DNA of 14,933 nt from an uncultured bacterium (GTDB taxonomy: Bacteria; Patescibacteriota; Patescibacteriia; Patescibacteriales; Patescibacteriaceae). Positions 1 to 14,584 of the stretch are shown here, piece after piece. Position numbers and translations under genes: made by a program. The first letter of the stretch is position 1, and the number at the start of each line of letters is the position of its first letter. The DNA is taken from positions 1 to 14,933 of the forward strand of contig CALMNI010000183.1 of NCBI GenBank assembly GCA_937868555.1, read 5' to 3'. The notes below the pieces were generated by a model. That model saw only the letters and a program-made list of their open reading frames with translations, was not told the DNA's origin and did no database searches.

Positions 1-1432
1 AGCCATCCAAACTAACAGTGTCGCCATCTTTAAGGCGCTTAGTAATTCCTAATAACCCTACTACCGCCGGTATCTTCATCTCACGGCTAATAACTGAAAC
101 ATGCGCTGTTATTCCGCCTTCTTCAGCGATAATACCGGCCACTTTACCTAATATAGGAACATAATCGGGACTAGTGTTAGTTACGACGATAATATCATTT
201 TCTTTAATTTTATGAAAGTCATCACTGCTTAAAACAATCACTGCTCGGCCAGTAGCCTTACCCTTGGATGCTGGTCGTCCGGTATATTCTTTCTCATGTC
301 CCGATTCGGCCGGCACTAAATAACGAGCCGCAAAAAGCTCGGCCTCTTCTCCGGCTAAGGGGAAAATATGCCCGGTATACGATATAAGAACATGCCGTTC
401 AGCACGCTTCTTAACGTAATCTAAATCTACCACTCCCCCTTCCAATACTTTTTCTATTTCGCTGGGAAGCATATCTTTTATCACCTCGATAGCTAGTCCG
501 CTACGACGAGAAATTTCTCCAAACAAAGGCTCGGCGAAATATGTAATGGCATTAACGGAAAATTTAAAATAATCTTTCAAATAAGCCGCTTCACCCGCGA
601 TTCTCGCTAAGGGCTTTAAGTCATCCGGGTGAGAAGCGAGTAAAGCCTTTTGTTCTTTAAGAATCATCTTGGTCGAAGCGAGACGTTCGTTTATTTTTTC
701 TTGTGGATTATTGTGTAATGCTTCGCTTAAGGCGTGGCGATAGGTCTCAATCGTTTTTGGTTTTTCATTATAATAACCGCAGATTATCCACGCATAGGCA
801 TCATGAATCTTGTGCAAATATTTTTGAACGTACTTTGAATCTATAGAAATATTTTTCTTAAGCATCTTTGCTGCTAATGCAAGGATAGCGCTTTCTTCTT
901 GATACGCGAAACCGGGGCGCGTTGGGAGACTAATAGTATGTATAATGTCATGCGCTTCCGCACTGTATTGCTTAGAACAATAAGCTATAATACCTCTATC
1001 AATAAAACGAAGAACAACCGCATGATATCCTAATGCGGCAAACTGTTCATTGAAAAAATGAAATTCTTTGATTAAATCTTTCGTAGAAATATGTTCCGGA
1101 TTAATAGCCTTGAGTCGCCGCATCGCTTCTACTCGCAGTTTGGTCGTCATTTTTTCAAGAACTTTTAATTCTTGAGGTTTTTTAAGAAATTGGCAGAAAA
1201 AGGTCTCAAAATCCTTAGGGTCTTTAAGGAACCAAATCCATTGGACTTGATGAGCCTTTGAGTCACCAACAAGCCCAAATGTTTGCGGCAAGGGCCAGCG
1301 CTTTGTTTCCGGCGGACGGCTATAATTTATAAACAAATTGTAGCTGGTATACAAATAACAAGCTCTTCCGCCTTCAAAGGAAAAATAAATTTCATCAAAA
1401 TATTTAAACAAATCTTGCAAATCTTTTTCCAT
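1..1432 (-). CDS. PEP-utiliser swivel-domain protein, array gene 1 (3' end cut by window edge)
   Basis: The frame is open from ATG at 1432 to the window edge, giving 477 visible codons; by comparison with its neighbours about 10 residues are missing. The C-terminal part from about residue 380 is a phosphohistidine swivel domain with the core GGITAHVSVISREMKIP, catalytic His at about 444. The central helical part (about residues 260-330) carries EAAYLKDYFKF and resembles the region before the swivel in PEP synthase and rifampin phosphotransferase. The N-terminal half shares RFIDRG, YQEES and CGYYNE blocks with genes 2 and 3. No ATP-grasp signature is visible. The start lies 1 nt after the stop of gene 2 and lacks a Shine-Dalgarno sequence, so translation is probably coupled. 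It is the closest relative of gene 3 (both have TAHVSV and TKRLKDGD). The substrate is unknown. Confidence 0.85.
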   Translation of the reverse strand, partial: MEKDLQDLFKYFDEIYFSFEGGRACYLYTSYNLFINYSRPPETKRWPLPQTFGLVGDSKAHQVQWIWFLKDPKDFETFFCQFLKKPQELKVLEKMTTKLRVEAMRRLKAINPEHISTKDLIKEFHFFNEQFAALGYHAVVLRFIDRGIIAYCSKQYSAEAHDIIHTISLPTRPGFAYQEESAILALAAKMLKKNISIDSKYVQKYLHKIHDAYAWIICGYYNEKPKTIETYRHALSEALHNNPQEKINERLASTKMILKEQKALLASHPDDLKPLARIAGEAAYLKDYFKFSVNAITYFAEPLFGEISRRSGLAIEVIKDMLPSEIEKVLEGGVVDLDYVKKRAERHVLISYTGHIFPLAGEEAELFAARYLVPAESGHEKEYTGRPASKGKATGRAVIVLSSDDFHKIKENDIIVVTNTSPDYVPILGKVAGIIAEEGGITAHVSVISREMKIPAVVGLLGITKRLKDGDTVSLDG

Positions 1433-1433
1433 A

Positions 1434-2864
1434 TTATTCACTAATAGTAATAATTCCCCTATCGGCGTCGACCTCGACCATATCACCATCTTTAAACAGC
1501 AAAGGGGCATGTAAAATCCCCACTACCGTCGGTATCTTCATTTCACGGCTAATAACAGCGACGTGCGCCGTTATGCCTCCGTCCTCCGCAATAATAGCGC
1601 TGACGCTTTTAAGAATGGGTACATAATCTGGGCTGGTATTACGAACAACAATAATATCCCCGTCTTCAACTTTATTAAAATCTTCAACTCCCAAAACAAT
1701 TCGTGCCCTTCCGCGAACTTGTCCTTTGCAAGCGCAACGGCCTTTAAAAATTTTTCTTTCTTCTTCTTTAGGCAAAAGCCACTGCTGCTCGAAATCCGCC
1801 GCTTCCTCAGCAGTTAAAAGGATAACCTTTTCCATGCCGCCAATTAAGATACAATGCTCGCGACGCGCTCCTAATATTTCATCCGACGGAGTTACTCCTG
1901 TTTCATGAGCTTTTATAAGCTCATCATATGTCAGCGAGAGAAGATCCTCAATATTCCGTTGGCACTCATCCGCCAGTGGTACAAAAAATTCTTTCTCAAG
2001 ACGAACAATAATACGATTGATATAATGCTTATAGAGATCTTTAAGATATACTATATGAGAAGCTAAGGCAGCGGCAAGCTTTTGTTCTGCTGAACATGCC
2101 TGTAAAAACTTTCGGCGCCGCTCGGCACTTTCCGCATTTTTTTCGTCTAGGATCTTAAGAGCTGATTCCGGATCTTGTATATGCGAATTTATAAAAGCAT
2201 GATAATAACCCATAGTTCTACTCGGCTCGCTAAAATAACCAGTTATCAAGGAAGAAAATCTTTCATGAATTTCCAACAATGGTTTAACAAGCAACTCATC
2301 ATCTGCCGTCGTAATGCCTCGTTGCTTAGCTTCAAGCGCGACGATAAGCAAAGCTCGCTCTTCCTGAGCTAAAAATAACTCCCGCTCAGAAATAGAAATA
2401 ACTTCTATTGTTTCTTGGTGCGAAAAAGAAGCCACCGGATAGCGGTCAAAATACCGCTGAGCCCCCCTATCAATTACTCGGAGCAAGCCCGAAAAAAACG
2501 CGAGATTTTGCACTCCGCTCACAACTTCCATTAAGCGCTCAGAATTTTTACTGCCTGTATTTAAAAAAGAACTAAACTCAGAATGAAAGTTTTCGCTCAG
2601 CAAGCCCATTTCCTTTTCTATCTCAAAACTTGATTCTTCCCCGCGAAGATAGGAATAAAAAATATCATCGTAGACTTCTACGTGTTCAGCAAAAATTCTC
2701 CACTGCGCGTCATTGTTTCTTGAATTTATAACAGCAATTAGCGGCAAATTCCATTTTTTATATCCCGTACCATAATAACTAGCCAAAAGATAACTAAAAA
2801 AGAAATGCAGTTTACGGCCGCCCTCGTTAAGCATTATATGGTTTTGTAAATTGGGTGCCTGCAT
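1434..2864 (-). CDS. PEP-utiliser swivel-domain protein, array gene 2
   Basis: Encodes 476 residues. The swivel domain spans about 372-476, beginning at KGRCACKGQVRGRARIV and carrying GGITAHVAVISREMKIP with the predicted phosphorylated His at 434. Residues about 260-360 form the central helical part, with YLKDLYKHY (273-281) and LLSLTYDELI (308-317). The latter resembles the 'D-x-x-x-L-T-x-x-E-L' stretch that precedes the swivel in rifampin-phosphotransferase and PEP-synthase relatives. The N-terminal half has RVIDRG (129-134), AQEER (166-170) and TGYFSE (208-213), blocks shared with genes 1 and 3. No signal peptide or membrane segment is seen, so it is probably cytoplasmic. ATG at 2864 follows the gene 3 stop by 3 nt with no Shine-Dalgarno. 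PEP synthase is ruled out because the ATP-grasp and TIM-barrel domains are absent. Confidence 0.87.
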   Translation of the reverse strand: MQAPNLQNHIMLNEGGRKLHFFFSYLLASYYGTGYKKWNLPLIAVINSRNNDAQWRIFAEHVEVYDDIFYSYLRGEESSFEIEKEMGLLSENFHSEFSSFLNTGSKNSERLMEVVSGVQNLAFFSGLLRVIDRGAQRYFDRYPVASFSHQETIEVISISERELFLAQEERALLIVALEAKQRGITTADDELLVKPLLEIHERFSSLITGYFSEPSRTMGYYHAFINSHIQDPESALKILDEKNAESAERRRKFLQACSAEQKLAAALASHIVYLKDLYKHYINRIIVRLEKEFFVPLADECQRNIEDLLSLTYDELIKAHETGVTPSDEILGARREHCILIGGMEKVILLTAEEAADFEQQWLLPKEEERKIFKGRCACKGQVRGRARIVLGVEDFNKVEDGDIIVVRNTSPDYVPILKSVSAIIAEDGGITAHVAVISREMKIPTVVGILHAPLLFKDGDMVEVDADRGIITISE

Positions 2865-2867
2865 ATA

Positions 2868-4283
2868 TTAGGTACGTAATACCGTTACGATTCCTGCAGT
2901 GGCGTCAACTACGACATTATCGCCATCCTTTAATCTCTTAGTAACTCCAGAAATTCCAACAACAGCCGGAACTTTCATTTCCCGGCTAATAACGGAAACG
3001 TGCGCGGTTATTCCTCCCTCTTCAGCAACAATAGCGGCAACTTTTGATAACACCGGAACAAAATCGGGGCTGGTGTTCTGTACGACGATAATATCTCCCG
3101 AATTAACTTTAGCGAAATCATCCGGAGACAAAACAACAACAACTTTTCCTTGAGCCTTGCCCTTGCAAGCCGGACGTCCCTTAAACTCCGTGCTGTTCTC
3201 CGCCTCAACATGCAAAAAATGTCTTTCAAGTTCGGCCGCCTCGCTGCCGGTATAGTGCGCACTATAACTTTCTGTTTTTATAATAAAAATACTATGAGCG
3301 TTATAGGCGCTGACCCTCTCGCGATCAAGCGGACGCCCTCGCAAAACAGTATCTAAATCATCGTGCATTAAGGTCTTTAAATATTTTGCCGGCAAGGATG
3401 TATGGAACGCTGCCTGCTGCCACATAATCTCAGCAACAGCCTGCGCCCGGTTTGCGGAAAATTTATAATAATCCTTAAGCCAGGCTGATTCACCTATGGC
3501 CATAATTAACTTCTCATGGGCAGGATATTTTTGAATAAACTCATCGCGCTCGCGCAAACGTTCAGTATGCTCAGCGGTATTTTTTTCTAATTCAGACTGA
3601 GCATCAAGCTCCCGCAATACTTGCAATTTTTCAATATAATATTCAAGTGAACGCGCCTGTTCATTATAGTAGCCTAATGTTATGTGTGAAAAATGAGCAT
3701 ATACATCCTCGGCCAGCGTACGAATATCTTCGCTTCCGCTTTCACATGCTGCCCGCGCTAAGGTCAGGGACTCTTGAACAAAAAATCCGGGGCGCTCGGA
3801 AACATTACAATGGCTTAAAATATCGCTAGCTAAGGATCCAAATTCTTTATTAACTGCCGCGATAATGCCTCTATCAACTTTTCGAAGATATACGGCGCAG
3901 TGATGGAGGTGTTGAACAATAACAAAGTAATCAGCAAACGCATCGGCCAGCGCTTCTCTGTTATGTACATCGCAGTCCTGCATACGAGCAATGGCGGCCT
4001 CGGATCGCATGCTAATTTCATCTTCGACTCCCTTGCCCCCATCGTTCAAAAAATAATTGAGGCTTTTTTTAACTTCCTGAGGTGTAAAAGAAAAATACAA
4101 TTTAAAATTATTATCCTTCATTTCAAGCAGCGAAGGCATATCGACTTGAAAGGGGCCCGGCCTATACAAATAACGGAATAAAATATTAACCGCCCACATA
4201 TATCCGGCTCGCCCCGCTTCGTATTCCAAGGGAGTAACGCTCAAATCATCTTCAAAGGCCTTAATAACTGCATCAGTAACCAT
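2868..4283 (-). CDS. PEP-utiliser swivel-domain protein, array gene 3
   Basis: Encodes 471 residues from the ATG at 4283. An in-frame ATG at 4328 would overlap the end of gene 4 by 41 nt; I prefer 4283 because it gives the 4-nt gap typical of this array. The swivel domain begins near 367 (FKGRPACKGKAQGK) and contains GGITAHVSVISREMKVP with His 428. The central helical part has ESAWLKDYYKF (265-275). The N-terminal blocks are RKVDRG (134-139), VQES (169-172) and LGYYNE (203-208), as in genes 1 and 2. No nucleotide-binding ATP-grasp motif is visible. It is translated between genes 4 and 2 and has no Shine-Dalgarno. Function is inferred only as a phospho-carrier or phosphotransferase-like protein of unknown substrate. 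Confidence 0.86.
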   Translation of the reverse strand: MVTDAVIKAFEDDLSVTPLEYEAGRAGYMWAVNILFRYLYRPGPFQVDMPSLLEMKDNNFKLYFSFTPQEVKKSLNYFLNDGGKGVEDEISMRSEAAIARMQDCDVHNREALADAFADYFVIVQHLHHCAVYLRKVDRGIIAAVNKEFGSLASDILSHCNVSERPGFFVQESLTLARAACESGSEDIRTLAEDVYAHFSHITLGYYNEQARSLEYYIEKLQVLRELDAQSELEKNTAEHTERLRERDEFIQKYPAHEKLIMAIGESAWLKDYYKFSANRAQAVAEIMWQQAAFHTSLPAKYLKTLMHDDLDTVLRGRPLDRERVSAYNAHSIFIIKTESYSAHYTGSEAAELERHFLHVEAENSTEFKGRPACKGKAQGKVVVVLSPDDFAKVNSGDIIVVQNTSPDFVPVLSKVAAIVAEEGGITAHVSVISREMKVPAVVGISGVTKRLKDGDNVVVDATAGIVTVLRT

Positions 4284-4287
4284 ATAG

Positions 4288-5616
4288 TTATAGTATGTTA
4301 ATTGTACCGAGATCGGCGTCAACTTCAACCATGTCTCCGTCTTTTAAAACTTTTGTAGCATTTTTAGTTCCAACAACACAGGGCTTTTTAAGTTCGCGAG
4401 CGACAATAGCCGCATGGCATGTTAAACCGCCAAAATCAGTAACAATTGCCGCCGACTGCTGCATGGCATGAATAATATCTGGCGTTGTCTCATAAGCAAC
4501 CAGTATCATCCCTTCCTTAAAATCTTTCATTTCCTCCCTAGTTGTAACAATTTTAACCTGCCCGACTGCTTTGCCTTTGTGCGCGCATAATCCCTTAATC
4601 TCCCTTGCATGCGTATTAAAGACAAGAAGTTTAGCAGCAGCAGCTTTTGTTTCTTCGATAGATAGTATACGTTCTTGACCGTCAAAATAAAAAGCGGTAT
4701 TTTGCTTACGAAGCAAGGCAGTTTCAGAACTTATCTGTTCAGAAATAATTTCACTGGCTGTATGTTCAACAATATCATTATAGGTTAAGCCAAACTGTTG
4801 TGCCTTTTTCTCTAAAATAAAAGAAGCATAATAACTTGCATAACCGCTCATCTCGGCGGCTCTAAATCGCAAAAATCCTATACGATTAAGCAAGTTAATT
4901 ACATAGTGCTCTTTTTCCGTTATTTCTACACTCTTTCTTTTCTCCGCTATGGGAGCGGCTGTTTGAGCTAAGCGGTCTTTTAACTCATTCAAAGTAAAAT
5001 GATGGATAGTAAAATGATGACTTCCGAGCCACTGATATTTTTGAACATGTCTAAGCGCTTCCTCAAGACAATCGGCGGGTATTTCGTCAAAACTTTGAAA
5101 ACTACGACCCAATGAATTTTCAATATTTTTACGAAGCACAAATAACTCATCTATTTGCTGCAAGGTCCACGGCTTTTCATCAAGAAATCCTACAACCGAT
5201 TCAAAAACTTCAGGATTTACTTCTTGGGCATACCGTTCAATACCGCTCGCAACAAGATTAAGCGGCATCCATAGTCCGGTCAGTAGCTTATAGCTATCAA
5301 AAAAATCAGGCAACGACGAAATATGTTCTACTTCGGTTTTCAATTTAATAACAACACCTTCCAACTCGTTTTGTATGCGAGAAAAAAAATCGAAATCTCT
5401 CTCGCTCGCCGCTTCATACGCCTCTTGCTGAAAACAATCAACATCATGTTTTGACAAAAAAAAGTCGCCATTTAAAAATAAAATCTTAGCGTCTAATTTT
5501 TCTTTAAAAAGTCGCTGGGCGACCTTGCCATACTCAAGCCATAACTCCGCCGCCAAAGCTGGTTCGGGCCATTTTCCAAGATGATGCCAAGATGTCTTAA
5601 GAATCTCTGTATCCAT
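4288..5616 (-). CDS. PEP-utiliser swivel-domain protein, array gene 4 (divergent)
   Basis: Encodes 442 residues from ATG at 5616. An upstream in-frame ATG at 5673 would overlap gene 5 by 53 nt and is less likely, since 5616 leaves a 4-nt gap after the gene 5 TAG. The swivel domain (about 338-442) has GGLTCHAAIVARELKKP with His 401. It is preceded by TTPDIIHAMQQSAAIVTD, where the other copies have P-[DET]-[FY]-[AVL]-P, so this copy has IIHAM instead of the usual VP[IVL][LM]. It reads most like the C-terminal swivel of classical PEP synthases. The central region carries YQWLGSHHFT (194-203), comparable to the 'y-x-W-l' stretch of archaeal-type PEP-utilisers. The N-terminus resembles none of the neighbours by eye. 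There is no ATP-grasp domain and no TIM barrel. Confidence 0.85.
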   Translation of the reverse strand: MDTEILKTSWHHLGKWPEPALAAELWLEYGKVAQRLFKEKLDAKILFLNGDFFLSKHDVDCFQQEAYEAASERDFDFFSRIQNELEGVVIKLKTEVEHISSLPDFFDSYKLLTGLWMPLNLVASGIERYAQEVNPEVFESVVGFLDEKPWTLQQIDELFVLRKNIENSLGRSFQSFDEIPADCLEEALRHVQKYQWLGSHHFTIHHFTLNELKDRLAQTAAPIAEKRKSVEITEKEHYVINLLNRIGFLRFRAAEMSGYASYYASFILEKKAQQFGLTYNDIVEHTASEIISEQISSETALLRKQNTAFYFDGQERILSIEETKAAAAKLLVFNTHAREIKGLCAHKGKAVGQVKIVTTREEMKDFKEGMILVAYETTPDIIHAMQQSAAIVTDFGGLTCHAAIVARELKKPCVVGTKNATKVLKDGDMVEVDADLGTINIL

Positions 5617-5620
5617 ATAT

Positions 5621-7045
5621 CTATGTTCGCATAGAAAAACGACGAATAATACCCTCATTCGCATCAACCTCAATCTCTTCGCCCGTTGTTAGCAGCCGAG
5701 TAGCATTTTTTGTACCGATAACGCAGGGGATTTTTAATTCTCGAGCAACAATAGCCGCATGGCACGTTACTCCCCCTTCGTCCGTAACAACAGCGCTAGC
5801 CATTTTCATTAAAGGCAAAAATTCCGGCCTCGTCATCGATGTTACTAAAATATCTCCAGCTTGAAATTTTGAAAAATCCTGAGAAGTATTAATAATGGAA
5901 ACCAGACCGCGTACCAAGCCTCTATAAGCCGTCGTTCCTGCAATATCCCCGTTATGATTTTTTTCCAAACGATCACTGGCTACTTTTGTAAGGGACTCAA
6001 TATTGCCATACTCAAAAGCAATCTCTGCCGGAGAAAAAAGAATAGCGACTCCTTCTTTACGACGCTTAAGCTCATCTATATAATTAGGTGCTAAAACATG
6101 TCCAGAAAAAAAATCAGCTTGATAGGCATAGACAACATCATCAATGGGCAACCCAACATTAATGAATATACAGCGGGCAGTAGTAACTATTAAAGTAATC
6201 AATTTTTGCAAAGGATCTTTTCGACTATCTCGCATCAACATACATAGCTGCACAAAATAAAATACAAACTGGAGCGGTGCATCAAGCTGTAAACGATACC
6301 TATTGTTTTCTTTTTTATTCTCCACTGCTATTTTTTCGGCTGTTATAATTTCTTGCTTAATTGCGCTCTCGCCGCCTTTAGCCGAAATAGCTTTCACTAC
6401 CATGTCATCTATTGCCTCTATCTCCGGTACAGAAAAATAATCGGCAAATATATACTGTTTAGCGGACGCTGGCGCGGATGATATAAGAAATTCGTTTTGC
6501 CGGACGGCCAACGAAACAAAAGTCGCTTTTGAAGCAAAGATGAAAAACTCATCAAAAGATTTTTTTTCGCCTCCAGCTTTTTCATACAATTCCAATATCA
6601 ATTCTTTATCAAGCGATTCGCAAAAAACAGTTTCTGCAAATAAATAAAAGCACTCCCTATATAATTGTATTATTAATTCCTCTAGCTCATTAAGATTCAT
6701 CGAAGCTACAACGGTCGGCTCATATGTTTCGTACCACTGGTTTATTCGCTGAGAACTAGTATTAAAACCAAGGCTATGCGGGAAAGCATCGCCTAGAGAG
6801 CAAAAACGCTCATACGCTTCTCGCGTATAGGCAGTATGATCATTCAAAGAAAAATATGTTAAACCATAGCCCCTGGAAAGAAGGAGCAAGGCGCCGCTCA
6901 TTACTGCCTTGGTATGATAGGCCGAAATATAAGGAGGAAGACAGCCGCCAAAACCTGCCGCAAAAACTAATAAAGAAAAATTACCGGCTTGCGTAGCAAT
7001 CGGCTCGTCTTTTAAAATATCAACCGCTTTGTCAATAATATTCAT
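5621..7045 (-). CDS. PEP-utiliser swivel-domain protein, array gene 5
   Basis: Encodes 474 residues. The swivel domain covers about 365-474, with TSMTRPEFLPLM (402-413) and GGVTCHAAIVARELKIP, predicted phosphorylated His 429. The central helical part has MRDSRKDP (271-278), a signature shared with gene 6 (RDIRKDP) and gene 9 (RDQRKN). IFADYF (199-204) matches FTDYY of gene 6. The N-terminal 100 residues contain a Gly-rich hydrophobic stretch (FAAGFGGCLPPY, 28-39), too short and broken for a confident membrane segment. ATG at 7045 follows the gene 6 stop by 3 nt. It ends in TAG, the only junction in the array not ending in TAA. The tail RRFSMRT is slightly longer than in its relatives. Substrate unknown; the catalytic ATP-binding domain is absent. 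Confidence 0.87.
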   Translation of the reverse strand: MNIIDKAVDILKDEPIATQAGNFSLLVFAAGFGGCLPPYISAYHTKAVMSGALLLLSRGYGLTYFSLNDHTAYTREAYERFCSLGDAFPHSLGFNTSSQRINQWYETYEPTVVASMNLNELEELIIQLYRECFYLFAETVFCESLDKELILELYEKAGGEKKSFDEFFIFASKATFVSLAVRQNEFLISSAPASAKQYIFADYFSVPEIEAIDDMVVKAISAKGGESAIKQEIITAEKIAVENKKENNRYRLQLDAPLQFVFYFVQLCMLMRDSRKDPLQKLITLIVTTARCIFINVGLPIDDVVYAYQADFFSGHVLAPNYIDELKRRKEGVAILFSPAEIAFEYGNIESLTKVASDRLEKNHNGDIAGTTAYRGLVRGLVSIINTSQDFSKFQAGDILVTSMTRPEFLPLMKMASAVVTDEGGVTCHAAIVARELKIPCVIGTKNATRLLTTGEEIEVDANEGIIRRFSMRT

Positions 7046-7048
7046 ATG

Positions 7049-8491
7049 TTATGACGGTGTACTCACACTCTTTTCAATAATAGCAACAAGGCCTTCATCA
7101 GCATTAACCTCAACAAGATCTCCGTCATGCAATAGATGCGTAGCGAATTTTGTTCCGGTAACACAAGGAATGCCAAGCTCGCGCGAAACAATGGCAGCAT
7201 GGCAGGTTATTCCGCCTTCATTCGTTATAACCGCTGCCGCCCGTTTCATGTACGGCACAAACTCCGGTCTTGTCATTGAAGTAACAAGAATTTCCCCCTC
7301 ATTAAAGACAGGGTCTTTGGTTACATCCAATAGTATCCGTATCCTTCCTTTTGCTATACCGCGATTAGCGCTCTGCCCTCGTAACAAGTTTTCTTCATGC
7401 CCCGTATGAGCATTTAAAGACATTACGTCGGCAATACCGCTTTCAAAATCACTAAGCTCAACATCTACCGAAGCATCGCTATTCATTAAAATAATGCAGC
7501 CATCGCGGCGTTTTCGTATTTCGTCAGCATGTTCTTTCAACCATTCAACGCCTCGTTCGAATTCGTAGGCGACTACCGACAAAATATATAATTCTTCAAT
7601 ATGCGCCCGCCGCGCAAGCTCGGCGGCACACTCATATATAACAACCTGCGATTGGGCAATGGGATCCTTACGGATATCGCGCGCTTCCATTACATATTGG
7701 ATATATTCAACGAGGCGTTCATCTTCTGTATGTAATGCATTCTTCCATTTTTCAAATTCAATTTTTTCCTGTTCTTTCTTCCCGCGCTCGAAAGATATCA
7801 TATCCATGCTAGCGTTGCGCTTTGCTATTTGTTCCTGCAGCGCGCTTTGAATTTCGGAAATATCTTTGGGCTTATAATAATCAGTGAACATATAACGCCC
7901 CCGCTTTGCCGCCTCTTCCAATGAATAATGATCAAGCAGCTCCACTATTTTTTCTTGCCAGCGAATTTCAAATGACAAAAAGCAGGGGTGCGTTGCCCGG
8001 TCCCAAATTTCATTTAAAGCAGAAATAGAATGATGAGGGACAGAAGCCGAAATCATTCCATAATCAAGCATTTCAATATACATTGTTCGAATCGTTAGCT
8101 GCGACAAATACTCGGTCGTTTCCCGAAGCAAAGCTATAATATCTCTTTCAGACATAGCAGCGAGATCTCGCTCAGTCCGCCGTTCATATGTTTTCAAAAT
8201 GTTTTGGTATATTGGTTCATACCCGACTTTTAGTTCAGCAATAGAAATTTTCTTATCCCTGTAGGCAATGAACATATCCAAAGCTTTGCCCATATACGAT
8301 GTTTCATTGATAGCCGCCAGGGCTTCGTGTCCGCGATTAACCATGATAATAGGAAATGAAGTTTGCTCGCTGCGCGGTAAGCGGGTATCATTCCATGACA
8401 ATAAAATTAGCAAAGGCGAAAAAGCGCCCCGAAATGGATAGATGGGATTGCCCTTAATCTCCTCGTAAAATTTTTGTATTAAGGTATTCAT
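7049..8491 (-). CDS. PEP-utiliser swivel-domain protein, array gene 6
   Basis: Encodes 480 residues from ATG at 8491. A GTG directly upstream (8494) abuts the gene 7 stop and is an alternative start, but ATG gives the usual 3-nt gap. The swivel domain (about 368-470) begins at RGQSANRGIAKGRIRI, has TSMTRPEFVPYM (404-415) and GGITCHAAIVSRELGIP with His 431, and ends in a short extra tail (KSVSTPS). The central helical part contains MEARDIRKDP (268-277), the signature also seen in genes 5 and 9. Residues about 205-255 are rich in Lys, Glu and Gln and probably form a long helix, possibly a coiled coil. In the swivel part the nucleotide sequence is strikingly like gene 9, suggesting recent duplication or gene conversion. 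No ATP-grasp motif. Confidence 0.87.
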   Translation of the reverse strand: MNTLIQKFYEEIKGNPIYPFRGAFSPLLILLSWNDTRLPRSEQTSFPIIMVNRGHEALAAINETSYMGKALDMFIAYRDKKISIAELKVGYEPIYQNILKTYERRTERDLAAMSERDIIALLRETTEYLSQLTIRTMYIEMLDYGMISASVPHHSISALNEIWDRATHPCFLSFEIRWQEKIVELLDHYSLEEAAKRGRYMFTDYYKPKDISEIQSALQEQIAKRNASMDMISFERGKKEQEKIEFEKWKNALHTEDERLVEYIQYVMEARDIRKDPIAQSQVVIYECAAELARRAHIEELYILSVVAYEFERGVEWLKEHADEIRKRRDGCIILMNSDASVDVELSDFESGIADVMSLNAHTGHEENLLRGQSANRGIAKGRIRILLDVTKDPVFNEGEILVTSMTRPEFVPYMKRAAAVITNEGGITCHAAIVSRELGIPCVTGTKFATHLLHDGDLVEVNADEGLVAIIEKSVSTPS

Positions 8492-8494
8492 CAC

Positions 8495-9964
8495 TTATGA
8501 AATTATACGAACAATGCCATGATCAGCATCAACTTCCACTACATCCCCGTCTTTAAAGATTTGTGTTGCCTTGCCCGTCCCGATTACACAGGGTTTATTC
8601 ATTTCGCGGGCAACAATAGCAGCGTGGGAAGTTATGCCGCCTTCGTTAGTAACAAAGGCACCGGCTTTTTCCATGATTGGCACAAAATCAACCGAAGTCA
8701 TAGTTGTTACAAGAATATCGCCGCGATTGAGTTTAACAAAGTCTTTGCTTTCTAAAATCACCCGAGCAATCCCGCGCACGACACCCCTATTGGCACTTGA
8801 ACCCTTAACGCTTTGTTCGCCCGTACTCGCTGCCGGTCTTCGTCCTTCGGCAATATCAATCAATTCTTTAAAAGGGCGTAAATCCGCTTCTTCTAATAGT
8901 ACTTCTGCGCCTTCGGCGTTAATATAGGCCCCGGCAATATTTCGCTTTGCGACAAGAGCCAAAACATTAATTTTTTCGCCCTCTAACAAAGCGAGCATTT
9001 CTGGAGGCGTAAGATAAAAACCGTCGCGCCAATTGCTTGATCCGCCTAATGAAACGATGTATTCGAAAATAGGACGGTACTGTAAAGAAACGAAAGAAAA
9101 AATATTTTTTCTATATTCATTGAGATAGGTTGCTTCTTGCAAAGCATAGGCCAATACATCTATTGTTTCATCACTTATTTCTTTCAATACCCTATCGCGC
9201 GCTTCAAGGTGTCTGGCATGGTCCTGCATGAGAGAATCTAATTTTTGCTGGCAGTCTTCGGACATTATAGCAGCCAACTGCGTACGGGCATCATCTTTAG
9301 ACCATGGCGCTTCGCAAAAATTTACCGGAATATGCGCATGCTTATGCAACCAGGCGTCGAGACTTTTTTCAATCTCATCAGGTCCAATGCGCTTCGACTG
9401 TGCCAAAGCTCCGATAGCGCATAAATCCTGCTGCGATTCAAACAAAGGAGAATGCTTTTCTGGGTATGTTATAATCGAAACCACTTCCGCAGCCCGCGCC
9501 GTATCATATCCTTTATCTTGCAAAGTTTTTTCAAGCAACACGGTTGCTTCGCGCCCCAAAGAATTGGTTGTCATTAATGAGGGACAAAAACGCTGGTAGG
9601 CGGTAATAAAATCGCTAAATGTCGCGACATTTGTATCAACACGGCAGCGTTCCAAAGCCATCATCAATTCCTCTGCGCGAATATGGCATAATTCATCAAG
9701 CTGGCTAATATTACTCCTACTCTTACAAAATTCTAATAACTTTTGTATATACTCGCCGAAGTTAGGTTCGTAATAAAAAATACTAGTGGCCGTTCCGTTA
9801 CGGCTGACATGCAAAGCTTCCAGCCGAACATCAATGCCGAAATCTTTGACGTTATAATAATAGCCAAGATTACCGAGATACTCATGCCAAAAAGACAGAT
9901 TCCGATTAACGACCAACTTCCATTCTTTGCCTTGAAATGTAACGGTATTTTTTACTTCTGACAT
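8495..9964 (-). CDS. PEP-utiliser swivel-domain protein, array gene 7
   Basis: Encodes 489 residues from ATG at 9964, 1 nt after the gene 8 stop. An ATG at 10024 would extend it by 20 residues into gene 8 and is rejected. The swivel domain (about 385-489) has GGITSHAAIVAREMNKP with His 447. The TSHAA form is that of pyruvate phosphate dikinase rather than the TCHAA of most neighbours. The central part is the clearest match to the rifampin-phosphotransferase/PEP-synthase linker: YLNEYRKN (280-287), then FYLTPPEMLALLEG (316-329) and an Arg before the swivel. The N-terminal 60 residues (FQGKEWKLVVNRNLSFW onward) look like a small beta-containing fold with no equivalent seen in other copies. TTMTSVDFVPIM replaces the Pro-Glu/Pro-Asp of the relatives. 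No ATP-grasp domain is present. Confidence 0.86.
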   Translation of the reverse strand: MSEVKNTVTFQGKEWKLVVNRNLSFWHEYLGNLGYYYNVKDFGIDVRLEALHVSRNGTATSIFYYEPNFGEYIQKLLEFCKSRSNISQLDELCHIRAEELMMALERCRVDTNVATFSDFITAYQRFCPSLMTTNSLGREATVLLEKTLQDKGYDTARAAEVVSIITYPEKHSPLFESQQDLCAIGALAQSKRIGPDEIEKSLDAWLHKHAHIPVNFCEAPWSKDDARTQLAAIMSEDCQQKLDSLMQDHARHLEARDRVLKEISDETIDVLAYALQEATYLNEYRKNIFSFVSLQYRPIFEYIVSLGGSSNWRDGFYLTPPEMLALLEGEKINVLALVAKRNIAGAYINAEGAEVLLEEADLRPFKELIDIAEGRRPAASTGEQSVKGSSANRGVVRGIARVILESKDFVKLNRGDILVTTMTSVDFVPIMEKAGAFVTNEGGITSHAAIVAREMNKPCVIGTGKATQIFKDGDVVEVDADHGIVRIIS

Positions 9965-9965
9965 A

Positions 9966-10946
9966 TTAGTTAGAGATAAGGGTAATAATGCCTTGTTCGG
10001 CATCCACCTCGACCATATCGCCATCTTTGAAAACTTGAGTGGCGATTTTAGTACCGATAATGCAGGGTTTTTTTAACTCGCGAGCGATGATAGCGGCGTG
10101 GCACGTTATACCGCCCTCATCCGTAATAACTGCCGCCGCTTTTTCTAAAATAGGCGCAAAAGTTGGCTGCGTCATAGCAGTTACAACAATATCCCCTGTT
10201 TGAACTTTATGAAACTCATCGGGTGAAAAAATTATTTTTACTTTACCCTCAACTTTTCCTTTAAAGGCTACTAAGCCTTTTATTTCTGTCGCCTCAACTA
10301 TTTTCGTTTCCTCAAATGAAAAATCGCGCTTTTTCAAAAAATCTTCCCATGATATGGTATAAAAATTATTTTTTGAAAAAACATAGCCTTTTTTTAAATC
10401 AGTATTTTCCGTAAATACATTGTCCGAGTTCAAAACGGAAAAAGATGATTGCCGTTCTGACTCAAAAACAGACGCGGCCATAGCATCGAATGTATTAAAA
10501 ATACCGTCCGACAATTCTCTGTATGCCGTACACAGCTTGATGATATTCTCTTTCTGGCTTGGTTCAATTTCGTCAGCCCACACATTGGGCACAAAAAAAC
10601 TAACGGCAAACAAAGGATAGATAACTTCAATCAAGCGCATTGCCTCTCGAATATCTTTTCGCTGCAGAGCTTCATTATAGGCTTTAATAAGATTTTTATA
10701 CTCTTCTATATGAGATCCAAAAAATTCGTTATGCGCGTGCGCCAGCATGGCGTCTTTTATTGCTCCGTGTAACTCCTGCGCTAAGCGAAATACTTCAACT
10801 TTACGGCCGTCAAATTTGGCGATTAGATCGCTGAAGCCTTTGCCAATAACTACTTCCAGTCCTCGTGTCGCCCCAAAATACCACGCCTGAATAGTAAGGG
10901 GATGATAGAAGCGTGTAACAATTTTCTGCAAAGCTTGCGTCGGCAT
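9966..10946 (-). CDS. PEP-utiliser swivel-domain protein, array gene 8 (short form)
   Basis: Encodes 326 residues, about 120-160 fewer than its neighbours. The start (ATG 10946, 3 nt after the gene 9 stop) fits the array and the frame is intact, so this is not simply a degraded copy. The swivel domain (about 222-326) is complete: FKGKVEGKVKIIF, then TAMTQPTFAPILEKAAAVI, then GGITCHAAIIARELKKP with His 283. Missing relative to the others is the central helical part with the RDxRK or YLKDY signature; the N-terminal region passes through a helical stretch (about 55-165) and a short linker directly into the swivel. It may have lost that subdomain or be a minimal carrier. No ATP-grasp domain. Function unknown. 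Confidence 0.85.
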   Translation of the reverse strand: MPTQALQKIVTRFYHPLTIQAWYFGATRGLEVVIGKGFSDLIAKFDGRKVEVFRLAQELHGAIKDAMLAHAHNEFFGSHIEEYKNLIKAYNEALQRKDIREAMRLIEVIYPLFAVSFFVPNVWADEIEPSQKENIIKLCTAYRELSDGIFNTFDAMAASVFESERQSSFSVLNSDNVFTENTDLKKGYVFSKNNFYTISWEDFLKKRDFSFEETKIVEATEIKGLVAFKGKVEGKVKIIFSPDEFHKVQTGDIVVTAMTQPTFAPILEKAAAVITDEGGITCHAAIIARELKKPCIIGTKIATQVFKDGDMVEVDAEQGIITLISN

Positions 10947-10949
10947 ATT

Positions 10950-12410
10950 TTAGCGTATAATGGTGATAATGCCTTTATCAGCATTCACTTCAACCATATC
11001 TCCATCTTTGAGAATATGCGTCGCAAATTTTGTTCCAATAACACAGGGTTTATTGAGTTCGCGGGAAACAATGGCAGCATGGCAGGTAATACCGCCTTCA
11101 TCGGTTACAATGGCTTTAGCCTTGCGCATAAGCGGCACAAACTCCGGGCGGGTCATGCCAGTAACTAATATCTCTCCCTCTTTAAAAGCAGCAAAATCAT
11201 CAGTCGATTTTATAACTCGTACGCTCCCCGTAACTACTCCCTTATTACCAACACGCCCGGCAATTTCTCCGCTTTGTTTCTCCTTGCCTTCTAAATAAAA
11301 ATCGTTGATTTGTTTATATTCCTCTTCAATATTGTCATGAGAAATAACAGCCTCCCCTTCATATGGAATAAACACGACATAATTATCAACGCGCAATTCT
11401 AACTCTTGTTTAAGAGAAGCAATATAGGTGCTCCCTCTGCTTAGCTCTTCAAAAGGACGAATATTTTCAATCAAAGATGCATCGACTCCCGCGCTTGCAA
11501 AAACTTTTTCCGCAATACGCCAAGCAATCACAAAACCTTTGGCAAAAAAATTCTTCCGCTGGTCGCGAACGCGCATTACTGACTGGCAATAATCAGCGAT
11601 ACGTTTTTGATCCTCCGAAAGCGTTTCCTTCCAAGCGCTATAGGATTGTTTTTTCAAGGCATCTTCTGCGTCCATTTCTTCCAAGGCCGTCACCGCTTTT
11701 TCGGGATGCTCCAAAAATTCTGCATACGTTTTCTGCAATTCCTGTTTAACATATGCCAAATCATATACTTTACGATACGAAGCATAAAAATACTGGCAAT
11801 GTTCAATCAAGGCCTCGCTGTTTCCCAAGCGCTGCAGCGCATTTAAAAAATCTCGTCGCTGTTCCTTGTCAAAAGATTCGGCAATAGAGTTTGTTGCTTG
11901 TTGCCACATTGCTTCAATATCACGACGCGCTATGTCAGGACGCTTCTCTGCTAGAACTTCTAAGCAAATATCAAAATCAAAGTGCAAAGAATAATGAGAC
12001 CAGGCGTTAGACTTCCAAATAAGATTAAAGGCCTCGCTAGCTATAGGTAACAGCTCTTCTTCATTTTTTCCGGCAATGTATTCATACGTATGCTGATTAT
12101 ACAAATCATCAATAGCCGGGAAATTTTTATAAAAATTATCCTCGATCATAGTGAGCGAGGATGAATCAAGCAGGTACTTGCCTAAAGCTTCTACGGAATA
12201 CTGATGCAAAGCATGCTCGCTGATAAAAGTTTGCGAATTGCCCTTATAGCGTATCGTCAGCAAACAATAATTCGGCTGCGACTCGTATACCCCTTCATTA
12301 AAGCGCTTCGTATTATAACCGGAACCGAAAACAAACAACGAATAATTGTTGAGCGGCGGCCATGATTGCGTCCCCCCTAAACTCTTAATAAAAAGACTGG
12401 ATATATCCAT
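10950..12410 (-). CDS. PEP-utiliser swivel-domain protein, array gene 9 (promoter-proximal)
   Basis: Encodes 486 residues and is the first gene of the transcript. The swivel domain (about 380-486) has TGMTRPEFVPLMRKAKAIV and GGITCHAAIVSRELNKP, His 444. The central helical part carries MRVRDQRKN (279-287), as in genes 5 and 6. Residues about 220-275 are rich in Lys, Glu and Gln and likely helical. The N-terminus (NNYSLFVFGSGYNT, 21-34) resembles the FSLLVFAAGFGG stretch of gene 5, hinting at a shared N-terminal fold in this subgroup. ATG at 12410 has no Shine-Dalgarno; instead an inverted repeat ends 6 nt before it. A near-consensus promoter lies about 70 nt upstream. As in all copies, the nucleotide-binding and PEP-binding domains of true PEP synthases are missing. 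Confidence 0.88.
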   Translation of the reverse strand: MDISSLFIKSLGGTQSWPPLNNYSLFVFGSGYNTKRFNEGVYESQPNYCLLTIRYKGNSQTFISEHALHQYSVEALGKYLLDSSSLTMIEDNFYKNFPAIDDLYNQHTYEYIAGKNEEELLPIASEAFNLIWKSNAWSHYSLHFDFDICLEVLAEKRPDIARRDIEAMWQQATNSIAESFDKEQRRDFLNALQRLGNSEALIEHCQYFYASYRKVYDLAYVKQELQKTYAEFLEHPEKAVTALEEMDAEDALKKQSYSAWKETLSEDQKRIADYCQSVMRVRDQRKNFFAKGFVIAWRIAEKVFASAGVDASLIENIRPFEELSRGSTYIASLKQELELRVDNYVVFIPYEGEAVISHDNIEEEYKQINDFYLEGKEKQSGEIAGRVGNKGVVTGSVRVIKSTDDFAAFKEGEILVTGMTRPEFVPLMRKAKAIVTDEGGITCHAAIVSRELNKPCVIGTKFATHILKDGDMVEVNADKGIITIIR

Positions 12411-12607: not shown

Positions 12608-13297
12608 TTGAGCGAAAATCTAATAAAAAAAGAAATTAAAAACAACGTTCCTGTCAAAAACGCTTTTATTTCGGTTTACAACAAAGCATACCTGCTGAAC
12701 CTAATAGAGGGATTGTTAAATTATTGCCCCGACATCACCATCTATTCCAGCGATGGCACCTACAAAGCAATTGCTAATTTACTAAATCCACAAAAAATTC
12801 AAAAACATCTCAAGCAAGTGTCCGAATATACAGGACAACCAGAAACCGAAGGCGGACTTGTAAAAACTCTTCATCACAAACTTTTTTTAGGCTATTTAAC
12901 TGATACAACATTAACTTCTCACCAAGAAGACCTAAAAAGAGAAAATGCTGTTCCAATAGACTTAGTGGTTGTAAATCTCTATCCTTTTCAGGATGTCATT
13001 TCGCAAAAAGATTGCGCCTTAGAACTCGCTCGCAAAAATATTGATGTTGGCGGTCCTTCGGCTTTACGCGCAGGAGCAAAAAATTTCCTCCGCGTAATGA
13101 CACTGACTGAACCAACCTCATACAAACAATTTATTGATTCATTAAGAATTAATAAAGGCGCGACAACACTAAGACAAAGGATTGACGCCACTAAAAAAAC
13201 ATTTGGTATGCTCAGCCGCTATGACGGGGCTATATCTCACTACATTGAGAACCTTGACATACGCAAAGCATTAGAATGTTACGACATTATTAAATAA
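12608..13297 (+). CDS. purH: Stand-alone IMP cyclohydrolase (N-terminal domain of PurH)
   Basis: Encodes 229 residues that match the MGS-like IMP cyclohydrolase half of PurH, which closes FAICAR to IMP in the last step of purine synthesis. Visible blocks in order are ISVYNK (21-26), VSEYTGQPET (71-80), VKTLHHK (85-91), VVVNLYPF (120-127), NIDVGGPSALRAGAKN (144-159). The residues that correspond to the family's catalytic Lys, Tyr, Asp and Lys are all kept (K86, Y125, D146, K158), so the domain looks active. The usual STGGT phosphate loop reads SSDGT (47-51). The AICAR transformylase half (about 300 residues in normal PurH) is absent: the frame stops cleanly and the next gene is convergent. The gene starts at TTG with a good Shine-Dalgarno and ends before a hairpin terminator. 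By eye it is more AT-rich than the neighbouring array. Confidence 0.88.
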   Translation: MSENLIKKEIKNNVPVKNAFISVYNKAYLLNLIEGLLNYCPDITIYSSDGTYKAIANLLNPQKIQKHLKQVSEYTGQPETEGGLVKTLHHKLFLGYLTDTTLTSHQEDLKRENAVPIDLVVVNLYPFQDVISQKDCALELARKNIDVGGPSALRAGAKNFLRVMTLTEPTSYKQFIDSLRINKGATTLRQRIDATKKTFGMLSRYDGAISHYIENLDIRKALECYDIIK

Positions 13298-13363: not shown

Positions 13364-14584
13364 TTAATCCGTATGATCGATAAAAGAAACCGTTTTTCTA
13401 AAACCTATGCGGTCATGCGCTAAGCTTTCCGTTCCCAGCATTGCTCCCCGCCGTACGGTATATTCACCAAACCTATCATTAATCGTATCTAAAGCAGCAG
13501 ACAAAGAGCGATTTTTAAAAGAATTAGAAAATAGTGAAAGCTGGCCGCTAACTGAATGCAAGGAAGAAACAGAAATAGCTAACATTCTTACCGGTGCTGC
13601 TAAATCCATCTTATTAAATTGATGCAAAGCAGCCTCAAAAATTTCTTCGGTAGTAAACAAAGGAGTGGCTGAAGTTTGACTCACCTGCAAAAAATCTCGA
13701 GAAATAAGGCCTACTTGCAAGGAAATACGATTAGCCTCAAAATCCCGCTCACGCAAACGGCGTCCGGTTTTTTCACATAATTTATATAAAATCCTATCTA
13801 AATATTCATGATCGGTTGTCTTACGAGGCAAGCAATAAGAATGGCCAATTGATTTAGGCGCTACTGAGCCTTTAGTAACGACGGAAATTTCTTGGCCATT
13901 AACATTGGCCCACATATAATAGCCGTACAAACCTAAAATTTTCTTTAAACGAATAGGATCAGCTTGCCGCAATTCATTAAGCGTCCTAATGCCAAGACCG
14001 CGCAAGCGGCGTTCCATTCCCTTGGCAATACCCCAGGCATCAGTAACAGGACGCTCTAAGTGTTCAGCTAAATTTTCCGGTTGTATTACCAATATCCCCG
14101 CCTTGGGAGAAATATCACCGGCGTATTTAGCTAAAAATTTAGTCCAAGAAATTCCCACCGAACATTTCAGCCATTCGCCGACTTCATCAAAAATACGCTG
14201 TTTAATTTCTTGGGCCGTTTCTACGGCTTGATCATATCCGCTGACGGTTTTACTTATATCAACAAAAGCTTCATCAATACTATAGGGCTCAAGATTATCA
14301 GTGTAATCACTTAAGATAGAGAAAATTCTTTTGGTTACGGTTCTATATTTAGCTGGTTCGTTTTCGAGCAGCACAATAGCAGGGTCAAGCACTTTAGCAT
14401 CAGCAATGCGCATGGCCGTTCGAATACCTTTGGCCTTCGCTTCAGTAGAACTGGCAATAATTGCTCCATTCGGTGATACGTAGGCGCACACGCCTACTGA
14501 TTTTCCGCGCAAAAAAGGATTGGCTTGCTGTTCAACAGAAGCAAAGTAAGAATTCATGTCTACATGAAGGATGAGGCGAGGCAT
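13364..14584 (-). CDS. dinB: DNA polymerase IV (Y-family translesion polymerase)
   Basis: Encodes 406 residues of a Y-family polymerase that copies damaged DNA. DMNSYFASVEQ (9-19) supplies the first metal-binding Asp (D9) and the steric-gate aromatic (F14). YSIDEAFVDIS (101-111) supplies the catalytic Asp-Glu pair (D104, E105). Fingers and palm follow, with helix-hairpin-helix motifs around GIAKGMERRLRGLGIRT (185-201) and a little-finger domain from about 240. A clear beta-clamp binding motif QLSLF sits at 348-352, with about 50 more residues after it (LDTINDRFGEYTVRRG, DRIGFRK). This is an internal position, unlike E. coli Pol IV where the motif is at the very C-terminus. ATG at 14584 is well supported because the conserved N-terminus follows at once. 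It lies downstream of a DUF6504-like gene, a common partner of such polymerases. No LexA box was recognised. Confidence 0.94.
   Translation of the reverse strand: MPRLILHVDMNSYFASVEQQANPFLRGKSVGVCAYVSPNGAIIASSTEAKAKGIRTAMRIADAKVLDPAIVLLENEPAKYRTVTKRIFSILSDYTDNLEPYSIDEAFVDISKTVSGYDQAVETAQEIKQRIFDEVGEWLKCSVGISWTKFLAKYAGDISPKAGILVIQPENLAEHLERPVTDAWGIAKGMERRLRGLGIRTLNELRQADPIRLKKILGLYGYYMWANVNGQEISVVTKGSVAPKSIGHSYCLPRKTTDHEYLDRILYKLCEKTGRRLRERDFEANRISLQVGLISRDFLQVSQTSATPLFTTEEIFEAALHQFNKMDLAAPVRMLAISVSSLHSVSGQLSLFSNSFKNRSLSAALDTINDRFGEYTVRRGAMLGTESLAHDRIGFRKTVSFIDHTD

What the first reader, a model, noticed from the sequence alone, without database searches (positions are those of the whole stretch)
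1..12410. Nine tandem PEP-utiliser swivel proteins with no ATP-grasp or PEP-binding domain
Nine successive genes, about 12.4 kb, all end in a phosphohistidine swivel domain with the catalytic His intact (residues 444, 434, 428, 401, 429, 431, 447, 283 and 444 in genes 1 to 9). Known swivel enzymes (PEP synthase, PPDK, rifampin phosphotransferase, enzyme I) carry the phosphate-donor domain in the same chain. Here the donor domain is missing from every copy while the N-terminal regions are strongly diversified. That suggests an expanded set of acceptor- or substrate-specific phosphotransfer subunits, a system I cannot match to any described one.
Basis: partly seen in the sequence, partly recalled or inferred. 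Interest (0 to 1): 0.87.

Follow-up and report, generated by a model that had tools for sequence, protein, structure and literature searches.

The report
One phosphate donor, many swivel acceptors
A tiny bacterium carries dozens of diverse phosphate-passing proteins that lack an ATP-binding part, and a single separate ATP-binding protein in the same genome probably charges them, a one-to-many enlargement of a two-part enzyme type known so far as pairs.

The parts
2..1432 (-). Gene 1: acceptor domain + C-terminal swivel, cut by the contig edge (start 1432; His 444). Long class.
1434..2864 (-). Gene 2: acceptor domain + swivel, His 434
   Evidence: PF00391 E 2.2e-21; best N-domain relatives are genes 1 and 3; motif K-D-L-Y-K
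2868..4283 (-). Gene 3: acceptor domain + swivel, His 428 from start 4283
   Evidence: PF00391 E 2.4e-22; motif K-D-Y-Y-K
4288..5616 (-). Gene 4: acceptor domain + swivel, His 401 from start 5616
   Evidence: PF00391 E 1.5e-27; the RPH-like acidic and second basic residues of the acceptor motif are not kept here (R-F-R-A-A)
5621..7045 (-). Gene 5: acceptor domain + swivel, His 429
   Evidence: PF00391 E 2.2e-26; motif R-D-S-R-K
7049..8494 (-). Gene 6: acceptor domain + swivel, His 432 (431 from the ATG at 8491)
   Evidence: PF00391 E 1.9e-25; motif R-D-I-R-K
8495..9964 (-). Gene 7: acceptor domain + swivel, His 447 from start 9964
   Evidence: PF00391 E 2.9e-26; a PRK06241-type NCBIfam model extends upstream of the swivel, ORF residues 256-509; motif N-E-Y-R-K
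9966..10946 (-). Gene 8: short-class acceptor domain + swivel, 326 aa, His 283
10950..12410 (-). Gene 9: acceptor domain + swivel, His 444; first gene of the operon
   Evidence: PF00391 E 3e-25; motif R-D-Q-R-K

Best explanation
The nine genes encode acceptor subunits of a split, RPH-type dikinase system in which one stand-alone ATP-grasp protein serves many acceptors. Proposed cycle: the lone ATP-grasp subunit (G000 contig C2, 318 aa) binds ATP. The swivel domain of any of the 39 acceptor proteins docks on it, and its His takes the beta-phosphate (ATP to AMP + Pi + phospho-His). The swivel turns back to its own N-terminal acceptor domain, where a basic residue (RPH R666 equivalent) positions the phosphate for transfer to a hydroxyl of a bound substrate that differs from paralogue to paralogue. 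Nearby histidine-phosphatase-like enzymes may reverse the product or discharge the His. SHOWN here: domain content, intact His, predicted fold of two members, a single lone donor with most catalytic ATP-grasp residues kept, genome co-occurrence, cis-fused one-donor/many-swivel chains. INFERRED: that the lone donor charges the window proteins, the chemistry, small-molecule substrates, the phosphatase role.
For: (1) Fold: gene 1 and gene 8 models align with RPH from residue 320/325 to 858/867, i.e. acceptor + swivel without ATP-grasp. A 108-row family profile matches RPH at E 6e-38 over residues 441-865. (2) Donor: one non-PEP-synthase ATP-grasp in the genome, a complete 318-aa ORF whose K21, R113 and S132 align with RPH K22, R117 and T136, on a contig with a swivel gene and 6 bp upstream of an ORF that looks like an acceptor N-domain. 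(3) Among 61 genomes (own plus 60 relatives of the order), 20 of 24 with at least 2 swivel domains have this second ATP-grasp against 1 of 37 others; leaving out five genomes where it is only fused, 15 of 19 against 1 of 37, Fisher p 3e-9 (one of the 15, G058, is truncated). (4) Among 379 phylum genomes I took all 22 others with at least 5 swivels: 21 of 22 have it, 20 as one lone ORF and one broken, and 7 of the 22 show no PEP synthase-type match. (5) Nineteen single chains carry one ATP-grasp and 2-5 swivels; Pfam confirms 1+5, 1+4, 1+4, 1+4 in the four largest. (6) Lone and fused states switched at least 11 times on the ATP-grasp tree. (7) In another genus of the order, N-domains are under purifying selection (dN/dS 0.09-0.15 in the three of six acceptor pairs with usable dS).
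Against: No biochemistry. The donor gene is not in the window operon. G056 (7 swivels, 98% complete) and G119 (5 swivels; its only ATP-grasp is a frame-broken PEP synthase) have no lone donor; G023, G032 and G035 also lack a standard one, and G047 has a lone donor with a single swivel domain. By sequence alone the best PDB matches of the family profile are PEP synthases (E 2e-54), through the swivel, and in both VIA lists swivel-only matches score Z close to RPH; the case for RPH rests on coverage of the N-domain at rmsd above 5. The RPH acid and lysine positions are only partly kept (43 of 108 D/E, 64 of 108 K/R) and not in the short class; gene 4 has lost both. The G000 donor does not group with its order-mates' lone donors, so the association may have arisen more than once. 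The assembly is 202 contigs and 94% complete, so a second donor could be missing.
Confidence: 0.78

Rival explanations
1. A regulatory phosphorelay: the lone ATP-grasp charges swivel proteins whose phospho-His state, set by a signal bound to the N-domain and reset by histidine phosphatases, controls transcription or partner proteins.
For: HTH domains (Cro/C1-like, MerR, ArsR/MarR-like) fused to acceptor-swivel modules in several genomes, including L016:5776-7428 of the window's own genome; histidine-phosphatase-like ORFs enriched near these genes, 37 of 369 near against 6 of 371 far.
Against: None of the nine window proteins has an HTH at E up to 1 in Pfam. The two modelled members keep the RPH acceptor fold, and most members its phosphate-positioning basic residue. 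A weak methyltransferase match and an ABC transporter among neighbours hint at small-molecule tailoring.
Confidence: 0.22
2. The swivel proteins are charged by the housekeeping PEP synthase or another donor; the lone ATP-grasp has an unrelated job.
For: A full PEP synthase is in the genome (L021:70-2445); G056 and G119 have several swivels and only a PEP synthase ATP-grasp.
Against: Seven array genomes show no PEP synthase-type match, only the second-family ATP-grasp. All 12 lone donors in A1 lie within 4 kb of a swivel gene, 6 of them within 50 bp. Cis-fused chains pair the same ATP-grasp family with the same swivels.
Confidence: 0.07
3. The array is not catalytic: a fast-diverging family kept as decoys, binders or scaffolds.
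For: N-domains share only about 20-25% identity; gene 4 has lost part of the acceptor motif.
Against: The motif His is present in all 40 swivel domains of the genome; swivel pairs have a median identity of 53% while N-domains diverge; dN/dS is low in orthologues of another genus.
Confidence: 0.04
4. Assembly or binning artefact: swivel contigs of another organism in this MAG.
For: The three same-genus genomes searched have only one PF00391 domain each.
Against: Contamination 0.64%; LepA on the same contig as a swivel gene (C107) is 79-81% identical to same-genus LepA, the closest of the 40 other genomes searched (one contig tested); similar arrays occur in other genomes.
Confidence: 0.04

Closest known systems
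Two-component small-molecule dikinases HpeHI, CreHI, PpsAB (PMC12167813; abstract and passages read)
   Same: ATP-grasp on one chain; RIF-binding-like substrate domain plus C-terminal swivel His on the other
   Different: Described, as I read it, as 1:1 pairs for aromatic catabolism; here 39 acceptors to one donor, complete acceptors of 326-551 aa against 71 kDa for HpeH; not compared directly with HpeH sequence
Rifampin phosphotransferase RPH (PMC4844700, passages; PDB 5fbs/5fbt/5fbu)
   Same: Same acceptor + swivel fold and domain order; R666-equivalent basic residue mostly kept
   Different: RPH is a single chain with its own ATP-grasp; window proteins lack it
PEP synthase / PPDK
   Same: Swivel domain and, in the lone protein, the ATP-grasp domain
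   Different: No PEP/pyruvate-binding domain PF02896; swivel at the C-terminus, not central
PTS enzyme I / HPr (recalled as an analogy)
   Same: One general phosphoryl donor serving many specific acceptors through phospho-His
   Different: Donor would use ATP, not PEP; each acceptor carries its own swivel and substrate domain
RedH / PigC ligases (NCBIfam matches)
   Same: Models match the lone donor and the acceptor C-termini
   Different: Models cover one chain; all matches far below the curated cut-offs

Membership tests
Two-component RPH-type dikinase (HpeHI/CreHI/PpsAB) | Acceptor subunit = substrate domain of RPH fold + C-terminal swivel with catalytic His | tested here: met
   (two of nine modelled; all nine in one homology network)
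Two-component RPH-type dikinase (HpeHI/CreHI/PpsAB) | Separate ATP-grasp subunit in the same genome | tested here: met
   318-aa ORF, PF01326 E 4.1e-97
Two-component RPH-type dikinase (HpeHI/CreHI/PpsAB) | Each acceptor has its own donor beside it (1:1 pair, as I read the described cases) | tested here: not met
   39 acceptors, one lone donor, on another contig
Two-component RPH-type dikinase (HpeHI/CreHI/PpsAB) | Both components needed for ATP-dependent phosphorylation of the substrate | not testable with these tools
   Needs enzyme assays
Rifampin phosphotransferase (RPH) | ATP-grasp, acceptor and swivel in one chain | tested here: not met
   No PF01326 in any of the nine
Rifampin phosphotransferase (RPH) | Acceptor-site residues R666, E667, K670 | tested here: inconclusive
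   In the nine window genes: basic in 8, acidic in 8, basic in 7 (gene 8 by inference); in A2, 81, 43 and 64 of 108; in A3 only R666 kept, 71 of 72
PEP synthase / PPDK | C-terminal PEP/pyruvate-binding domain PF02896 | tested here: not met
   none at E up to 1
Known anti-phage defence family | Match in PADLOC-DB | tested here: not met
   No match for 4 of the 9 window proteins, the lone donor and the L051 chain at E up to 0.01; the other 5 were not tested

The most novel reading that the evidence does not exclude
A general one-hub, many-spokes phosphotransfer platform of ultra-small, probably host-dependent prokaryotes (Patescibacteria and DPANN archaea): a single ATP-grasp hub charges a fast-evolving, exchangeable repertoire of phospho-His acceptors, in trans, in operons, or as one-hub/multi-swivel single chains. 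Together with histidine phosphatases and HTH-fused members, it would phosphorylate and release many external small molecules, a functional counterpart of the PTS that runs on ATP.
Probability: 0.3. Interest if true: 0.9.

Novelty: new variant of a known kind. Interest (0 to 1): 0.77.

Why it matters
A genome of about 1 Mb spends 39 genes on one kind of phosphotransfer acceptor and, as far as assembled, keeps one donor for them. If the donor is shared, this is an ATP-driven analogue of the PTS with an unusually large set of specificities, in organisms whose dependence on hosts is poorly understood. It gives a direct test: one purified donor against many acceptors. It also gives a functional handle on uncharacterised Patescibacteria and DPANN genes, and I found no description of the one-hub/multi-swivel chains in the papers searched.

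Tried and rejected
Cryptic ATP-grasp in the N-domains: rejected by Pfam and by two models. Contamination: unlikely. Anti-phage defence: no PADLOC match in the proteins tested. Rfam: nothing in the window at gathering scores. The 24,859-aa open frame listed for G360 is a stretch read as N, not a giant gene. Pfam His_Phos_1 alone is a poor marker of the nearby phosphatase-like genes: 24 matches in 16 genomes, few beside arrays. The near/far test used a short motif, which also catches non-phosphatases, and was not significant for the window's own and order-level loci (11 of 191 near, 1 of 37 far). Single-linkage networks can chain; the reversed control gave 2 edges against 2541 at E < 1e-4 and 3 against 2761 at 1e-3, but at E < 1e-10 the largest group holds only 4 of 9 window genes. 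I first counted G119 among the genomes with the second-family donor; searches show its ATP-grasp pieces belong to a frame-broken PEP synthase, so it is now an exception, while G243 has one 386-aa lone ORF and G205 a donor broken in two frames. Literature: no paper on swivel arrays in Patescibacteria or DPANN was found in the listings (open-licence PMC only; subscription papers not covered). Read: PMC12167813 outline, abstract and passages; PMC4844700 passages; nothing else beyond listings. Labels lone/fused are mechanical: 5 of the 27 lone ORFs exceed 400 aa (two at a contig edge) and may be mis-called, which also affects the count of changes. A wider DPANN count was not made (one search failed).

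Full report
OBSERVATION. The window is contig C183 of a 1,016,061-base, 202-contig, 94% complete genome. No name is given for it; I infer Patescibacteria because the nearest named relatives of its lone ATP-grasp are titled so (71% identity to L051). Nine minus-strand genes from 2 to 12410 each end in PF00391 and show no PF01326 or PF02896 at E up to 1. The genome has 40 PF00391 domains, and the motif His is present in all 40 ORFs. One is the full PEP synthase (L021:70-2445), leaving 39 proteins without a donor domain.

THE DONOR IS IN TRANS. PF01326 rings twice in the genome: in the PEP synthase, and in a complete 318-aa ORF on contig C2. That ORF lies downstream of a swivel gene and a Sua5-like gene (named by eye), and 6 bp upstream of an ORF cut by the contig end that resembles an acceptor N-domain by eye but has no NCBIfam match. 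Its K21, R113 and S132 align with RPH K22, R117 and T136 (alignment; roles from PMC4844700 passages). Twelve such lone proteins, from this genome and eleven relatives of the order, align end to end, the others 51-59% identical to the window genome's. Their nearest swivel genes lie 0-3939 bp away, 6 of 12 within 50 bp. Acceptor N-domains, by contrast, share about 20-25%.

ONE DONOR, MANY ACCEPTORS. In 61 genomes (own and 60 relatives of the order), the second-family ATP-grasp is present in 20 of 24 genomes with at least two swivel domains and 1 of 37 others (p 3e-11); by genus 17 of 20 against 1 of 22; without five genomes where it is only fused, 15 of 19 against 1 of 37. One of the 15, G058, is a truncated 259-aa ORF. 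These rows are related genomes, so p-values are optimistic. Exceptions are G023, G032, G035, G056 and G047. In 379 genomes of the phylum (which scored at most 15 candidates each), 133 have no PF00391. The window genome has the most candidates (42; next 21, 18, 16). I then tested all 22 other genomes with at least five swivels: 21 have the second-family ATP-grasp, told from PEP synthase by score and frame length. In 20 it is one lone ORF (19 with frames of 312-346 aa; G243 386 aa), and in G205 it is broken in two frames beside two swivel genes. G119 has only a frame-broken PEP synthase. Seven (G102, G130, G219, G243, G296, G412, G430) show no PEP synthase-type match.

CIS-FUSED CHAINS. By ORF, 27 are lone and 53 fused to a swivel. 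Nineteen fused ORFs exceed 1000 aa and hold 2-5 swivels with one ATP-grasp. Pfam gives 1 PF01326 + 5 PF00391 in L051 (2609 aa, Patescibacteria HKST-UBA43) and 1+4 in L085 (2217 aa, Woesearchaeota), L113 and L127. The L051 genome also has eight further swivel domains on the same contig and strand just after that chain. On an ATP-grasp tree, lone and fused states change 22 times, at least 11 forced by well-supported branches. The window genome's donor lies among fused relatives such as L051, L053 and L058 (92/86), not in the lone-donor clade of its order-mates (99/98), so the many-to-one state may have arisen more than once.

CONTEXT. Within 2.5 kb of these genes, 37 of 369 ORFs carry a histidine-phosphatase-like motif against 6 of 371 farther than 4 kb (p 4e-7; 34 of 79 loci); it is not significant in the window's own and order-level loci. 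Pfam confirms His_Phos_1 in several and finds nothing in others. HTH domains precede the acceptor module in own-genome L016:5776-7428 (MerR type), L106 (Woesearchaeota), L103, L036:3614-5380, L048, and weakly in L036:5753-7630, L038 and L042. In one other genus of the order I compared eight orthologue pairs: six acceptors and two ATP-grasps. N-domain dN/dS is 0.09-0.15 in three acceptor pairs, one was saturated and two had no computable dS. No same-genus orthologues of the window genes were available.

MECHANISM. By homology with RPH and HpeHI, I infer ATP-grasp-bound ATP to swivel phospho-His to a hydroxyl of a substrate in the acceptor domain. HpeHI is reported to need both parts, with the His essential. 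That one donor serves all 39 follows from genome counts and from the cis-fused chains, not from an assay. Small molecules are the likeliest substrates because described relatives act on small molecules, but a signalling role is open.

NOVELTY. The parts are known: the system is a variant of two-component RPH-type dikinases. The scale (39 to 1), its recurrence across the phylum, the presence of the family in DPANN archaea, the multi-swivel chains and the HTH fusions were not found in the listings of the paper searches made.

Noticed in passing
window 12608-13297 (+): A 229-aa ORF with an MGS-like domain and only positions 2-59 of 311 of AICARFT/IMPCHase: looks like a truncated PurH beside the operon.
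   Followed up: no
window 13364-14584 (-): DNA polymerase IV-like protein (impB/mucB/samB) next to the array.
   Followed up: no
L036:11279-12760 (+): A variant swivel protein with GGTGITSHPAT in place of the usual GGxTxHAA motif; possibly altered or inactive.
   Followed up: partly
L033-L046, L050: In several order-level genomes the array lies in a recurring neighbourhood whose genes I read as rsmI, metG, cvpA, sua5 and tatD (names by eye), suggesting an old locus.
   Followed up: partly
L031:13962-19683 and L032:3-863: Several ORFs that look alike by eye, one with a weak methyltransferase match, lie between swivel genes in the G049 array; a neighbour family with G049 members recurs in 3 genomes or loci.
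   Followed up: partly
L078:12427-14397: A histidine phosphatase domain and an N-formylglutamate amidohydrolase domain in one ORF beside an ATP-grasp locus.
   Followed up: no
G056 (L046, L047): Seven swivel domains but no lone donor; next to the swivels sits a RhuM-like ORF (named by eye) that in G031 flanks the donor, as if the donor had been lost.
   Followed up: partly
L140:3896-4675 (G058) and L138:4160-5247 (G205): Lone donors that look damaged: one lacks its N-terminal part, one is broken across two frames; decay or sequencing error.
   Followed up: partly
L080, L097, L101, L130: Nanoarchaeota, SR1 and Falkowbacteria ATP-grasp domains group closely (97/96): cross-domain transfer or mis-binned contigs.
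   Followed up: no
phage records MT838023.1, MT835602.1, OR848170.1 and others: Eight phage-labelled records encode distant relatives of the lone ATP-grasp at 34-38% identity.
   Followed up: no
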